DNA of 64,000 nt, from NCBI GenBank assembly GCA_032622095.1, contig CP136063.1, positions 114,410,723 through 114,474,722 on the forward strand. The letters run 5' to 3'. The notes under the pieces are model-generated. The model ran no database searches, was not told the DNA's origin, and saw only the letters and a list, made by a program, of their open reading frames with translations. The position numbers were made by a program, and so were the translations under genes. Every line of letters starts with the position of its first letter. Within the stretch, counting starts at the first letter, position 1. Of this stretch, positions 16,141-62,991 are shown in pieces. The DNA is from Siphonodentalium dalli (lineage: Eukaryota > Mollusca > Scaphopoda > Gadilida > Siphonodentaliidae).

Positions 16141-17846
16141 AGCTCAACTTTACTTTGTAAAGTTTGAGCTATTGCCATGGCTTTGTCGTCCGTCGTCCGT
16201 GTGTGCGTAAGGCGTCAACAATGCAGGCTACAGGTCGTACCTTTGGTCGGATCATTATGAAATTTGTCATAGCTGTTGACATCAACATTTAGACCAGAAT
16301 GATTAATTTTGGGGTCATTCGGAAAAAAAACATGGCCGCCATCGGCCATCATGGATTTCAAAATTCAATCCATTAGCACGGGCTACAGGCCATATTGTTT
16401 GTCTGATCGTCATGAAATTTGTCATGGATGCTAATATTGACATGTAGATGGGAACGAGTCATTTTGGGGTCATTCGGCCCAAAAACATGGCCGCCAGCAG
16501 CCATCTTGGATTTTACTCTTTTTATGACTAAATTCTTTAGCACGGGCTACAGGTCGTACTTTTAGTCTGATCATCATAAAATTTGTCATGGATGTTACCA
16601 ATGACATGTAGATGGGAACGAGTCATTTTGGGGTCATTCGGCCAAAAAACATGGCCGCCAGCAGCCATCTTGGATTTTACTCTTTGTATGACTAAATCTT
16701 TAGCACGGGCTACAGGTCGTACCTTTAGTCTGATCATCATAAAATTTGTCATGGCTGTTGAAATTGGAATGTAGATGGGAACGAGTCATTTTGGGGTCAT
16801 TAGGACGAAAAACATGGCCACCAGCAGCCATATTGGATTTTACTCTTTGTATGACTGAATTCTTTAGCACGGGCTACAGGTCGTACCTTTAGTCTGATCA
16901 TCATAAAATTTGTCATGGATATTAACAATGACATGTAGATGGGAACGACTCATTTTGGGGTCATTCAATCGAAAAACATGGCCACCAGCAGTCATCTTGG
17001 ATTTTACTCTTTGTATGACTAAATTCTTTAGCATGGGCTACAGGTGGTACCTTTAGTATGATTATCATAAAATTTATCATGGATGTTAACAATGACATGT
17101 AGATGGGAACGACTCATTTTGGGGTTATTCGGCCGAAAAACATGGCCGCCAGCAGCCATCTTGGATTTTACTCTTTGTATGACTAAATCCTTTAGCACGG
17201 GCTACAGGTCGTACCTTTAGTCTGATCATCATAAAATTTGTCATGGATATTAACAATGACATGTAGATGGGAACGACTCATTTTGGGGTCATTCAATCGA
17301 AAAACATGGCCACCAGCAGTCATCTTGGATTTTACTCTTTGTATGACTAAATCCTTTAGCACGGGCTACAGGTCGTACCTTTAGTCTGATCATCATAAAA
17401 TTTGTCATGAATGTTAATAATGACATGTAGATGGCAACGAGTCATTTTGGGGTCATTCGGCCAAAAACATGGCCGCCAGCAGCCATCTTGGATTTTACTC
17501 TTTGTATGACTAAATCCTTTAGCACGGGCTACATGTCGTACCTTTAGTCTGATCATCATAAAAATTTTCATGGCTGTTGAAATTGGAATGTAGATGGGAA
17601 CGAGTCATTTTGGGGTTATTTGGCCAAAAAACATGGTTGCTGGCAGCCATCTTGCATTTTACTATTTGCATGACTAAAAGCTATCAAATGCTTTTGAATT
17701 TTATTGGAAAACAGCCGCCAGCAACCATCTTAGATTTTATATATATCTTCATGTCGATAAACTAGTATTAGACATTCAACTTTCCACATTCCTAATCACT
17801 CCATTGACTGTAATACATTAAATTATTCCCTTTCCAAGTTGAGCTA
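16141..17846. mobile_element. Dispersed element with an internal ~163 bp tandem array (eight to nine units)
   Basis: Ends AGCTCAACTTTACTTTGT and ...CCAAGTTGAGCT are short inverted repeats. After the 'gtcgtccgtcgtccgtgtg' leader, the phrase 'gcacgggctacaggtcgtac' recurs near 16379, 16540, 16703, 16867, 17032, 17198, 17361 and 17523, a period of 162-166 bp. Units also contain 'aacatggccgccagcagcca' and 'catgtagatgggaacga'. Several short frames on both strands are repeats of the same translation and not genes. Confidence 0.8.
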
Positions 17847-53616: not shown

Positions 53617-53714
53617 GAGTATCGAAGGAGAATATCAGAATTAGAAAAGGCACATGATAACAAAGGAATGTTACAATTAGAAAATAACAGGTTGCGAGAA
53701 GAAATGCAAGAAAG
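53617..53714 (+). CDS. Coiled-coil gene exon (32 codons plus two bases)
   Basis: The acceptor 'attttctcttcag' ends at 53616; the donor is AAG|GTAATA at 53715. It is 98 bp, phase 0 in and phase 2 out, encoding EYRRRISELEKAHDN at the start and ENNRLREEMQE at the end; the leftover AG pairs with the A at 55833 to make an Arg codon. Charged, Leu-spaced, Pro-free sequence continues the coiled coil. The intron before it is only 643 bp. With the following 145 bp exon it makes 81 codons, so the two behave as one frame-preserving unit and skipping either alone would shift the frame. Confidence 0.85.
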
Positions 53715-55832: not shown

Positions 55833-55977
55833 AATTGATACCTTGGACTTCCAATTAAAAACACTCAAGTCTCAACACCAGCATTCAGAAAATGAAAATC
55901 TACAAAGAAGTGCTCTTCTAGATGAGACCTCTCGGACATTATCACTGATGGAAGAGGAAAATGCCAATCTACAGAGG
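55833..55977 (+). CDS. Coiled-coil gene exon whose 3' end founded an intronic minisatellite
   Basis: The acceptor 'tgtattttatttcag' ends at 55832 and the donor is AGG|GTAATT at 55978. The 145 bp complete an Arg codon and add 48 codons (phase 0 out), beginning IDTLDFQLKTLK and ending MEEENANLQR, all coiled coil. The last 13 bases (caatctacagagg, 55965-55977) plus the donor are the first copy of the repeat unit that fills 55965-58890. If this donor were bypassed, the reading frame would meet a TAA at 56002-56004 inside the first repeat, so correct use of this first donor is required for a full-length product. Confidence in the exon is high; which of the many identical donors is used cannot be read from sequence. 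Confidence 0.87.
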
Positions 55978-58890
55978 GTAATTACAGGCTTATTTCTGTT
56001 ATAATTCAATCTACAGAGGGTGATTACAGTCTTATCTGTTATAATTCAATCTACAGAGGGTGATTACAGTCTTATCTGTTATAATTCAATCTACAGAGGG
56101 TGATTACAGTCTTATTTCTGTTATAATTCAATCTACAGAGGGTGATTACAGTCTTATTTCTGTTATAATTCAATCTACAGAGGGTAATTACAGGCTTATC
56201 TGTTATAATTCAATCTACAGAGGGTAATTACAGGCTTATCTGTTATAATTCAATCTACAGAGGGTAATTACAGGCTTATTTCTGTTATAATTCAATCCAC
56301 AGAGGGTAATTACAGGCTTATTTCTGTTATAATTCAATCTACAGAGGGTAATTACAGGCTTATTTCTGTTATAATTCAATCTACAGAGGGTGATTACAGG
56401 CTTATCTGTTATAATTCAATCTACAGAGGGTGATTACAGGCTTATTTCTGTTATAATTCAATCCACAGAGGGTAATTACAGGCTTATTTCTGTTATAATT
56501 CAATCTACAGAGGGTAATTACAGGCTTATTTCTGTTATAATTCAATCCACAGAGGGTAATTACAGGCTTATTTCTGTTATAATTCAATCCACAGAGGGTA
56601 ATTACAGGCTTATTTCTGTTATAATTCAATCCACAGAGGGTAATTACAGGCTTATTTCTGTTATAATTCAATCTACAGAGGGTAATTACAGGCTTATTTC
56701 TGTTATAATTCAATCCACAGAGGGTAATTACAGGCTTATTTCTGTTATAATTCAATCTACATAGGGTAATTACAGGCTTATTTCTGTTATAATTCAATCT
56801 ACAGAGGGTAATTACAGGCTTATTTCTGTTATAATTCAATCCACAGAGGGTAATTACAGGCTTATTTCTGTTATAATTCAATCTACAGAGGGTAATTACA
56901 GGCTTATTTCTGTTATAATTCAATCCACAGAGGGTAATTACAGGCTTATTTCTGTTATAATTCAATCTACAGAGGGTAATTACAGGCTTATTTCTGTTAT
57001 AATTCAATCTACAGAGGGTAATTACAGGCTTATTTCTGTTATAATTCAATCCACAGAGGGTAATTACAGGCTTATTTCTGTTATAATTCAATCCACAGAG
57101 GGTAATTACAGGCTTATTTCTGTTATAATTCAATCCACAGAGGGTAATTACAGGCTTATCTGTTATAATTCAATCTTCAGAGGGTAATTACAGGCTTATT
57201 TCTGTTATAATTCAATCTACAGAGGGTGATTACAGGCTTATTTATGTTATAATTCAATCTACAGAGGGTGATTACAGGCTTATCTGTTATAATTCAATCT
57301 ACAGAGGGTGATTACAGGCTTATCTGTTATAATTCAATCTTCAGAGGGTAATTACAGGCTTATTTCTGTTATAATTCAATCTACAGAGGGTGATTACAGG
57401 CTTATTTCTGTTATAATTCAATCTACAGAGGGTAATTACAGGCTTATTTCTGTTATAATTCAATCTACAGAGGGTGATTACAGGCTTATCTGTTATAATT
57501 CAATCTTCAGAGGGTAATTACAGGCTTATTTCTGTTATAATTCAATCTACAGAGGGTGATTACAGGCTTATTTCTGTCATAATTCAATCTACAGAGGGTG
57601 ATTACAGGCTTATTTCTGTTATAATTCAATCTACAGAGGGTGATTACAGTCTTATCTGTTATAATTCAATCTACAGAGGGTGATTACAGTCTTATCTGTT
57701 ATAATTCAATCTACAGAGGGTGATTACAGGCTTATCTGTTATAATTCAATCTACAGAGGGTGATTACAGTCTTATCTGTTATAATTCAATCTACAGAGGG
57801 TGATTACAGGCTTATCTGTTATAATTCAATCTACAGAGGGTGATTACAGGCTTATCTGTTATAATTCAATCTACAGAGGGTGATTACAGGCTTATCTGTT
57901 ATAATTCAATCTACAGAGGGTGATTACAGTCTTATCTGTTATAATTCAATCTACAGAGGGTGATTACAGGCTTATCTGTTATAATTCAATCTACAGAGGG
58001 TGATTACAGGCTTATCTGTTATAATTCAATCTACAGAGGGTGATTACAGGCTTATCTGTTATAATTCAATCTACAGAGGGTGATTACAGGCTTATTTCTG
58101 TTATAATTCAATCTTCAGAGGGTAATTACAGGCTTATTTCTGTTATAATTCAATCTACAGAGGGTGATTACAGGCTTATTTCTGTTATAATTCAATCTAC
58201 AGAGGGTAATTACAGGCTTATTTCTGTTATAATTCAATCTACAGAGGGTGATTACAGGCTTATCTGTTATAATTCAATCTACAGAGGGTAATTACAGGCT
58301 TATTTCTGTTATAATTCAATCTACAGAGGGTGATTACAGGCTTATTTCTGTTATAATTCAATCTACAGAGGGTGATTACAGGCTTATTTCTGTTATAATT
58401 CAATCTACAGAGGGTGATTACAGTCTTATCTGTTATAATTCAATCTACAGAGGGTGATTACAGTCTTATCTGTTATAATTCAATCTGCAGAGGGTGATTA
58501 CAGGCTTATCTGTTATAATTCAATCTACAGAGGGTGATTACAGTCTTATCTGTTATAATTCAATCTACAGAGGGTGATTACAGGCTTATCTGTTATAATT
58601 CAATCTACAGAGGGTGATTACAGTCTTATTTCTGTTATAATTCAATCTACAGAGGGTAATTACAGGCTTATCTGTTATAATTCAATCTACAGAGGGTGAT
58701 TACAGGCTTATCTGTTATAATTCAATCTTCAGAGGGTGATTACAGGCTTATTTCTGTTATAATTCAATCTACAGAGGGTGATTACAGGCTTATTTCTGTT
58801 ATAATTCAATCTACAGAGGGTGATTACAGGCTTATTTCTGTTATAATTCAATCTACAGAGGGTAATTGCAGGCTTATATCTGTACTAAAT
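55965..58890 (+). repeat. Minisatellite of about 70 units (42 and 40 bp) seeded by an exon end and its splice donor
   Basis: The first unit starts inside the coding exon: bases 55965-55977 are the last 13 of the exon, followed by the donor GTAATT. The unit reads caatctacagagg, then gtaattacagg, then cttatttctgttataatt (42 bp); a second form lacks two bases (cttatctgttataatt, 40 bp). Most early units carry GTAATT and many later ones GTGATT. The stretch 56250-57160 is nearly pure 42 bp; 57640-58080 is nearly pure 40 bp. Each unit also holds an acceptor-like ctacag just before the donor-like AGG|GT. Because 42 is divisible by three, long frames appear on both strands, including 243 codons on the minus strand; these are repeat artefacts. 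The last unit decays at about 58860-58890. Confidence 0.95.
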
Positions 58891-58904
58891 TGAAACTCAT
58901 CATC

Positions 58905-59270
58905 AGGCCTCAAAATATGGAAATTTGCAGAATGAGGTCCCCAGAGGGTGAATTTAGTGATGCTACCCCACCTCATTCTGCTCAGGCCTTATCTTCTCTG
59001 GAAAGTATCTTTATTATCAAATTAACAAGTTTATTTTAGTTTAACTTTAGAAAGTTTCTTTTTCTTTTTTGAATTTGTTTCTCTATATCCCAACATTGGC
59101 AGAGGACACAATGCATAATTGAGGTTCCAAATAAATGCACATCACCACCTTCACCACCTGGGAATTTAAACCTGTGCCTGGGTCAACAGAGGATGAATTT
59201 TGTGACTCTAGCCCACTGTGCAGGGAAACGTCACTAAATTCACTCTCTGGGGACCTCATTCTGCAAATGT
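58905..59270. repeat. Copy of the 'GAATGAGGTCCCC' palindrome family
   Basis: 'tttgcagaatgaggtcccca' with a shortened core, the 'ttatcttctctggaaagtat' linker, 'gcataattgaggttcca' and a right end 'cctcattctgcaaatgtcc'. It abuts the end of the minisatellite. Confidence 0.65.
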
Positions 59271-59485
59271 CCAGTGAATTCTCTTATATATGTGTGTCTC
59301 CCATGTGGAGCCTTATGTATATATATGAGAATGTACTGGCTTACAAAGTCAATGTAAATATTGTTAGGCCAATGTATTCTTTTATATATGCGATGCTCCC
59401 TTAGGGAGACTCGCACATATAACAGAATGCATTGGCACAGGGTTTTCTGAAAAATTTCAGGAAGCTCCAGTCATGGAAGGGTTAA
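59270..59485. mobile_element. TTAA-type MITE (type ii), left end missing
   Basis: Two AATGCATTCTC-type hairpins (about 59275-59335 and 59365-59440), then 'cacagggttttctgaaaaat' and the terminus AGCTCCAGTCATGGAAGGG with TTAA at 59482-59485, as in 48438-48700. The left terminus is replaced by the palindrome family copy. Confidence 0.68.
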
Positions 59486-59820
59486 AATAGGGGCAGGTGG
59501 TAATGGAATTCTGGCAATTATTTAGTTTTTGCCTTAGTTATTATTAAATAGGATTTCAAAGACTGAATCCAGCTGAATCTGGAATTAAATCTAATTTCAA
59601 TGTAATCACAGGCCTTAAATAATGGCGTTAAAAGGTTCAAAAAATGACATGTCATTTCTCAGCAATCGCACAAGTTCCATAATTTGTTAGTTGGTAACAC
59701 ATGTTCAGGTGTCACTATTAAACATCTCTTATGATATGCATTCATATTAAATATTTCAATTGAAAAATCAAACTTTTGTGAACATTTTACGTTAATATCA
59801 CCACTTTTCCTTTTCTTTAG

Positions 59821-59946
59821 GAACGCAAAGATTTAAAGAATGACTTAGGTGCTGTTAAAGACACTCTGCAGATGCAGCAGAGCAGATTTGACAACTTAGA
59901 TCAGGAAGAACGAGGCAATAAATATGAGCTGGCCAGACTAAAAGAT
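59821..59946 (+). CDS. Coiled-coil gene exon (42 codons, six heptads)
   Basis: The acceptor 'ccttttctttag' ends at 59820 and the donor GAT|GTATGC follows 59946. It is 126 bp, phase 0 at both ends. It encodes ERKDLKNDLGAVKDTLQM at the start and NKYELARLKD at the end, continuing directly from NANLQR of the preceding exon. Heptad spacing and charge are maintained, with one Gly-containing stretch (EERGNKYE) that may be a local stutter. The length is exactly six heptads. The intron upstream is 3.8 kb, of which 2.9 kb is minisatellite. Confidence 0.87.
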
Positions 59947-61487: not shown

Positions 61488-61655
61488 GAAAAACAGCGTC
61501 TTACAAGACAGTTAGATAATCGCGGAGGTGATATGTCGGATGTAAAAGCTAGACTAGCTAACGTGTCTTCAGAGAAGGACCGACTGTATCATGATAAAAT
61601 TGAACAACAACACAAAATGCAACAGTTAGAAATTGATAAAGAACAACTACTTAAG
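61488..61655 (+). CDS. Coiled-coil gene exon (56 codons, eight heptads)
   Basis: The acceptor 'atttattttttcaacag' ends at 61487 and the donor AAG|GTAAAT follows 61655. It is 168 bp, phase 0 at both ends, encoding EKQRLTRQLDNRGGDMSD at the start and EIDKEQLLK at the end. A Gly-Gly pair near residue 14 probably marks a break or hinge in the coil; the rest is a strongly charged coiled coil with a Gln/His-rich patch (KIEQQHKMQQ). The length equals eight heptads exactly. The open frame upstream of the acceptor and downstream of the donor is not supported as coding. Confidence 0.88.
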
Positions 61656-62865: not shown

Positions 62866-62991
62866 ACCAAGCAAGCTTTAGAAGATGAGCTGGAAGAACA
62901 ACAAAATGAGATTCGAAAAAATAAAAACAACAAAGACAGAAACTTTGATGAAAAACACAGGCTACAAGATGAGCTACAATCTGTCAAGCAG
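62866..62991 (+). CDS. Coiled-coil gene exon (42 codons, six heptads)
   Basis: The acceptor 'tgttgtattttttacag' ends at 62865 and the donor CAG|GTAATG follows 62991. It is 126 bp, phase 0 at both ends, encoding TKQALEDELEEQQNE at the start and RLQDELQSVKQ at the end, with a basic Asn/Lys patch (RKNKNNKDRN) in the middle. Still coiled coil. This is the last complete exon in the window; the next probably begins at the right edge. A TA-flanked palindromic MITE ends 74 bp upstream at 62791. Confidence 0.87.

What the first reader, a model, noticed from the sequence alone, without database searches (positions are those of the whole stretch)
55965..58890. An exon end with its 5' splice site has been amplified about 70-fold inside the following intron
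The minisatellite unit begins with the last 13 coding bases of the exon at 55833-55977 and includes its donor (AGG|GTAATT). The array runs straight on from the exon without a spacer, so the exon end is literally unit one. The intron therefore presents the spliceosome with some 70 copies of the same exon-end/donor context, in GTAATT and GTGATT forms. That the gene could tolerate this implies the first donor wins by position, or that many donors are used and products are removed. I know of no standard description of an intronic satellite founded on a constitutive donor in this way.
Basis: partly seen in the sequence, partly recalled or inferred. Interest (0 to 1): 0.85.

Follow-up and report, generated by a model that had tools for sequence, protein, structure and literature searches.

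The report
Exon ends amplified into intronic arrays
In this animal genome the last bases of an exon and its splice signal have been copied head to tail 71 times into the next intron, and the same thing has happened at other exon edges, which suggests that introns can grow by copying the exon border.

Summary
A 71-unit array (42- or 40-bp units) starts at 55965; unit 1 is the last 13 bases of exon 55833-55977 plus its donor, without spacer, and 71 of 71 units keep AGG|GT. Searches found the array at one place in the genome. The case is not isolated: of 21 arrays carrying AAGGTAAGT in tandem, 7 begin in an exon end with Pfam support, 12 counting those judged by eye. A mirror class ends in exon starts. 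In a sample taken by fn3 domain, 5 of 99 matches have their exon end straddled by a tandem duplication. Best reading: a duplication across the junction is tolerated because the exon-side copy stays intact; the intronic copies expand and drift. Later donors all give a premature stop (70 of 71), so the first is probably used; no RNA was available. A splice-donor minisatellite is already cited for human IFI6 (Turri 1995, title only). Recurrence at both intron ends of one genome is the new part; that junctions are hotspots is only suggested.

The parts
55833..55977 (+). coding exon D (145 nt; 1 nt + 48 codons) whose last 13 bases are the exonic part of unit 1
   Evidence: open frame, acceptor TTTATTTCAG, donor AGG|GTAATT
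55965..56006 (+). unit 1: last 13 exon bases + 29 intronic bases that begin with the donor (42 bp)
   Evidence: unit split
55965..58883 (+). minisatellite array, 71 units of 42/40 bp
   Evidence: TRF; unit map
58849..58896 (+). last, divergent unit, where the array runs out into other intron sequence
55978..59820 (+). host intron (3843 bp); its acceptor TTTTCTTTAG lies about 930 bp beyond the array and does not resemble the unit
59821..59946 (+). next coding exon E (42 codons, phase 0)
53617..53714 (+). coding exon C of the same gene (borders read by eye)
   Evidence: open frame and splice signals
61488..61655 (+). coding exon G of the same gene (borders read by eye)
62866..62991 (+). coding exon H of the same gene (borders read by eye)

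Best explanation
A segment straddling the exon end and its donor was once duplicated in tandem. The exon-side copy stayed under coding and splicing selection, so the gene still worked from the first donor. The downstream copies, now intronic, expanded and were homogenised by unequal exchange or slippage into a 71-unit array. The same process has acted at other exon-intron borders of this genome, at donors (array begins in the exon end) and, mirror-wise, at acceptors (array ends in the exon start), so introns grow by copying their own borders. Shown: anatomy, recurrence, and exon-to-array direction at 8 donor loci whose Pfam match reaches into unit 1. Inferred: the duplication mechanism, use of the first donor, and removal of mis-spliced products by nonsense-mediated decay.
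For: Window anatomy; one place found for array and gene. Recurrence at donors: exon ends with Pfam support at E<0.01 in L001 LEM 34.7 bits, L009 USP47_C 47.9, L012 PSI_PlexinA-B 32.8, L014 TSP_1 42.3, L021 MRP-S22 53.5, L027 Peptidase_A22B 28.7, all over the curated cut-off, and, below it, L017, L018, L020, L025. Mirror at acceptors: L040 SMG1 52.3 and L041 Pkinase 53.6 over cut-off, L034 and L046 below it. Sample taken by fn3 domain only: 5 of 99 fn3 matches straddled (4 with at least 3 copies), namely 72 bp x6.9, 72 bp x4.5, 44 bp x3.3 and 99 bp x1.9 in a titin-like gene and 59 bp x11 or more in L127; arrays sit at donors more often than random placement gives, 3 of 10 against 0.48 expected, P=0.0097. 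Two SPP-like paralogues keep the same exon copy while the array has 4.2 and 6.2 copies. Periods show no frame constraint: 8 of 21 donor arrays and 3 of 8 acceptor arrays, by-eye loci included, are multiples of 3. The 70 later donors in the window give a stop (70 of 71 donors).
Against: No RNA data, so donor use is unknown. No orthologue of the window gene could be searched. Hotspot claim is weak: by codon+acceptor score 8 of 21 AAGGTAAGT arrays look exon-founded against 3 of 40 single AAGGTAAGT sites (P=0.005), but against the 13 of those 40 that share no repeat with another sampled site it is 3 of 13 (P=0.30). The two 72-bp arrays are probably one event. No acceptor-straddling array was seen in the titin-like gene; the other 40 fn3 loci were cut at the donor side only. 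Raw pattern counts against the reversed control are mixed: 2221 to 2154, 1337 to 279, 123 to 387. About 9 of 21 AAGGTAAGT arrays and 5 of 12 are not, or not clearly, at exons.
Confidence: 0.75

Rival explanations
1. The extra donors are used: several or many units join to 59821, or the array is removed in steps, and the resulting mis-spliced transcripts adjust the gene's output through decay, as multi-donor minisatellites can make alternative transcripts.
For: Unit donors pair with the U1 5' end as well as the genuine donor of the exon (-6.0/-6.1 against -6.0 kcal/mol; C -6.6, G -6.8). [quoted passage not shown] 71 of 71 donors are intact.
Against: 70 of 71 choices give a stop. With few variable sites in a homogenised array, intact donors need no selection. 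In a C. elegans test with a duplicated donor pair most splicing stayed at the upstream pair (passages in PMC8865678). The unit has GG before GT, not AG|GT, so it is not a classical recursive site.
Confidence: 0.15
2. The array came first and the exon end is an exonised unit.
For: The first unit equals a common array variant (type B, 12 of 71 units), so sequence alone does not give direction here.
Against: Adding thirteen bases to an exon would break phase with exon E; a continuous leucine spacing crosses the border (my reading, no program run); at 8 comparable loci a Pfam domain match reaches into the exonic part of unit 1; in the SPP-like gene several intronic copies have drifted while the exon copy keeps frame.
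Confidence: 0.05
3. The array is an assembly artefact or was joined wrongly to the exon.
For: No reads were available.
Against: Fifteen unit variants in blocks, a clean edge at each end, and the same design at unrelated loci.
Confidence: 0.04
4. Junction arrays are simply the share of random minisatellites that happens to cover a splice site in a repeat-rich genome; nothing about junctions matters. (This rivals the novel reading, not the origin of the array.)
For: Arrays of a control motif also exist: 9 distinct in the listed rows from C1 to C4:286.7 Mb against 11 donor arrays in the same stretch. Enrichment is not significant against non-repeat sites.
Against: Placement test P=0.0097 in the fn3 sample. 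Per single occurrence the donor motif forms arrays more often (15,064 against 52,574 occurrences), though repeat-borne copies may inflate the control.
Confidence: 0.4

Closest known systems
IFI6 (6-16) minisatellite, Turri, Cuin and Porter 1995, NAR 23:1854
   Same: [quoted passage not shown] one sentence on donor use in PMC4526556).
   Different: I could not read the paper. As recalled, its units are about 12 bp; here units are 40-42 bp, 71 copies, donor use unknown, and the design recurs across one genome and at acceptors.
[quoted passage not shown] potato RdRp PMC4974935, abstract)
   Same: Tandem duplication that copies splice signals; in the potato case the duplicated piece crosses an intron-exon border.
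   Different: Those make a new intron from a duplication. Here the host intron keeps its own acceptor outside the array and the copies stay inside it, amplified many times.
Dual-specific splice sites and introns inside tandem repeats (UBC; PMC10809524, passages, part of the abstract among them)
   Same: Splice sites carried on the units of a tandem array.
   Different: There intron length is a multiple of the unit and both sites lie in the repeat; here only the donor does.

Membership tests
Splice-donor minisatellite (IFI6 type) | tandem array of a minisatellite unit, each unit with a donor | tested here: met
   71 of 71 units carry AGG|GT
Splice-donor minisatellite (IFI6 type) | array begins at the exon end | tested here: met
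   unit 1 starts 13 bases inside the exon; that IFI6 has this feature is recalled
Splice-donor minisatellite (IFI6 type) | more than one donor used in mRNA | not testable with these tools
   no RNA data
Intron gain by tandem duplication | both splice sites of the intron come from the duplicated segment | tested here: not met
   acceptor before 59821 lies outside the array and is unlike the unit by reading
Introns in tandem repeats with dual-specific sites | intron spans a whole number of units, same sequence as donor and acceptor | tested here: not met
   intron 55978-59820 ends about 930 bp beyond the array
Recursive splice sites | juxtaposed AG|GT | tested here: not met
   GT is preceded by GG in all 71 units

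The most novel reading that the evidence does not exclude
In this genome exon-intron borders, donors above all, are preferred birthplaces of tandem arrays. Several per cent of exon ends carry one, so introns grow outward from exon ends by repeated copying of the border itself, and the spliceosome routinely faces ladders of equal donors and must rank them by position.
Probability: 0.35. Interest if true: 0.8.

Novelty: new variant of a known kind. Interest (0 to 1): 0.62.

Why it matters
Intron growth is usually put down to transposons (general knowledge). Arrays seeded by the exon border itself are another source, easy to recognise because the seed is known. They are also natural experiments in donor choice: many equal donors in a row, of which one keeps the frame. 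They are likely to confuse RNA aligners and gene annotation: the EASTR paper (PMC10632439, passages) describes false junctions between tandem repeats.

Tried and rejected
Gene identity: a 370-residue joined exon translation gave only ERM_helical (19 bits, cut-off 40), and one solved-structure match at E=0.0012, a construct named after a viral spike protein, set aside as a chance coiled-coil match. No paralogue of the gene was found: the 7 matches at E<=0.001 are its own exons.

Hairpin in the unit as cause: fold z-scores -0.66, -0.96, -0.53 and +0.30, no unusual structure.

Exon-derived duplications at the other seven donors of the gene: none.

PF00069 as a source of random exons: swamped by a tandem kinase cluster, replaced by PF00041. 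CAGGTAAGT search: the listed rows come largely from a dispersed repeat family; apart from two arrays already in hand (L007, L009) its arrays were not examined.

Species: not identified. Print status: searches listed no title that describes junction-founded arrays as a genome-wide class; I read titles and abstract starts, not the papers, and the library lacks most subscription journals.

Full report
OBSERVATION. TRF gives 55965-58883, period 42, 70.8 copies. Splitting at CAATC gives 71 units: 42 of 42 bp, 28 of 40 bp and a divergent last unit, in 15 variants arranged in blocks. Unit 1 consists of the last 13 bases of the exon 55833-55977 and 29 intronic bases that begin with its donor; the base before it differs from the other units, so the exonic overlap is exactly 13. 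All 71 units keep AGG|GT (39 GTGATTAC, 31 GTAATTAC, 1 GTAATTGC). In the genome (2.23 Gb, 9 contigs) searches found this array at one place (28 and 34 matches, all inside it) and the gene at one place. The gene is an unidentified protein that I read as coiled coil; Pfam and solved structures do not name it.

SPLICING CONSEQUENCE. Pairing energy with the U1 5' end (typed from recall) is -6.0 for the real donor and -6.0 or -6.1 for the unit donors, near those of exons C (-6.6) and G (-6.8) of the gene; other donors range from -1.9 to -13.1. So the later donors are not weaker. Joining any later donor to exon E gives a stop (70 of 71 donors), because unit 1 continues GTA ATT ACA GGC TTA TTT CTG TTA TAA. 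Only the first donor keeps the frame. Position can favour an upstream copy: in C. elegans unc-73 with a duplicated donor pair most splicing stayed upstream (passages of PMC8865678). But factors can push choice either way (passages of PMC5585400). RNA would be needed.

RECURRENCE AT DONORS. I asked whether this is unique. The pattern AGGTAAGT three times in tandem gave 2221 places (reversed control 2154). The first 100 rows, all on C1, hold a 26-bp satellite near 232 Mb, set aside, and 12 other arrays, all fetched (L001-L012). Three of 12 begin in an exon end with Pfam support: LEM, USP47_C and PSI_PlexinA-B, all over cut-off. L002, L007, L010 and L011 look like exons by eye; L003-L006 and L008 do not, although L003 passes the score used below (9.1). 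The rarer AAGGTAAGT in tandem gave 123 places (control 387), 100 of them listed, 22 arrays. I examined 21 (L002, L013-L032); the 22nd, L136, is a paralogue of L027 fetched later. Seven of 21 have Pfam support at E<0.01: TSP_1, MRP-S22 and Peptidase_A22B over cut-off; AA_permease_2, EMP70, Cpn60_TCP1 and Dynein_AAA_lid below it. L018 has two array blocks, and only the first, of 3.1 copies, touches the exon. L002, L015, L024, L028 and L029 are exons by eye, making 12 of 21; nine are not or are unclear. In 8 of the 10 Pfam-supported loci of both sets the domain match reaches into the exonic part of unit 1 (LEM to residue 30 of 30, Peptidase_A22B 25 of 25); in L021 and L025 it stops short. So the exon is older than the array at those 8.

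RECURRENCE AT ACCEPTORS. TTTTTCAGG in tandem gave 48 places (control 1), all listed, 16 arrays; I fetched 14, leaving out two of families already represented. In the mirror position, array ending in an exon start, four of 14 have Pfam support at E<0.01: SMG1 and Pkinase over cut-off, Acyltransf_C and SSF below. L037, L039, L044 and L045 are exons by eye; L039, L044 and L045 had no Pfam match and L037 was not scanned. The other six (L033, L035, L036, L038, L042, L043) are not or not clearly at exons.

A SAMPLE CHOSEN WITHOUT REGARD TO REPEATS. The fn3 family search gave 150 matches. I took 59 in one titin-like gene (82 kb) and 40 elsewhere, leaving out apparent duplicates, long open frames and weak rows. 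Some matches may share an exon. Five of 99 have the exon end straddled by a tandem duplication: 72 bp x6.9, 72 bp x4.5 (a similar exon, probably the same event), 44 bp x3.3, 99 bp x1.9, and 59 bp x11 or more in L127 (cut at the end of the piece). Counting arrays with at least 3 copies and period at least 20, and the two 72-bp arrays once, 3 of 10 straddle a donor against 0.48 expected under random placement (P=0.0097; donor positions approximated as match end + 40). No acceptor case was seen in the titin-like gene.

LIMITS OF THE HOTSPOT CLAIM. Forty single AAGGTAAGT sites from the first 7 Mb of C1 were sampled. By a codon and acceptor score trained on 963 codons, with 258 AGGT sites of the window as null, 3 of 40 pass the 98% level, against 8 of 21 array sites scored leave-one-out (P=0.005). 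The score misses three Pfam-supported arrays (L014, L021, L027) and picks another frame in L018. But 27 of the 40 share sequence with another sampled site; against the 13 others (3 of 13) P=0.30. Pfam gave only one weak match, below cut-off, in ten peptides from those sites. A reversed motif gave 9 distinct arrays in the listed stretch where the donor motif gave 11, with 52,574 and 15,064 single occurrences. So recurrence is shown, preference only suggested.

HOW ARRAYS AGE. Two SPP-like paralogues 0.7 Mb apart keep the same exon copy while the array has 4.2 and 6.2 copies (L027, L136); several intronic copies carry a one-base insertion and substitutions that the exon copy lacks. Periods are multiples of 3 in 8 of 21 donor arrays and 3 of 8 acceptor arrays, by-eye loci included and the window taken as 42, about what chance would give, so the units are not constrained as coding sequence. 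In 7 of 10 loci tested a retained first unit brings a stop; in the other three the unit length is not a multiple of 3.

PLACE AMONG KNOWN THINGS. A minisatellite providing multiple donors in human IFI6 is the nearest relative (title; passage; paper not held). Tandem duplication across an intron-exon border is described as a route to a new intron in potato (abstract), and tandem duplication of AGGT-bearing exon pieces in a review (passages). Introns within tandem repeats with dual-specific sites are described for human UBC (passages). The window array meets the anatomical definition of the first and fails the defining feature of the other two. What I did not find in the searches listed under Tried and rejected is a genome where both kinds of border have seeded arrays repeatedly.

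Noticed in passing
G000 C2:149826753-150603706: Most of the 135 protein-kinase matches are similar open frames, many of 281 codons, in a cluster of some 0.8 Mb on C2.
   Followed up: no
G000 C1:231979802-232050096: A 26-bp satellite whose unit contains CAGGTAAGT, spread over at least 70 kb; exons beside it were not tested.
   Followed up: no
window 58925-59270: Just right of the array lies a transposon-like piece with inverted arms (GCAGAATGAGGTCCCCAGAGGGTGAATTTAGTGATG...); the same piece occurs at L007:2642-2836. It shares CAGAGGGTGA with the unit, taken as chance and not tested.
   Followed up: partly
L003, L004, L005, L006 and G000 C1:257632637, C2:19745375, C3:13675330: Arrays with related units (around AACCAATACAGGTAAGTGG or AGGTAAGTGGGTGTCTGACC) lie at several places, so a dispersed repeat family carries its own donor-like minisatellite.
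   Followed up: partly
L136 and L027: Duplicated SPP-like genes with the same junction array at 6.2 and 4.2 copies: a pair for timing array growth.
   Followed up: yes
window 16226-17678: A 164-bp tandem array of 8.9 copies, 88% matches, not examined.
   Followed up: no
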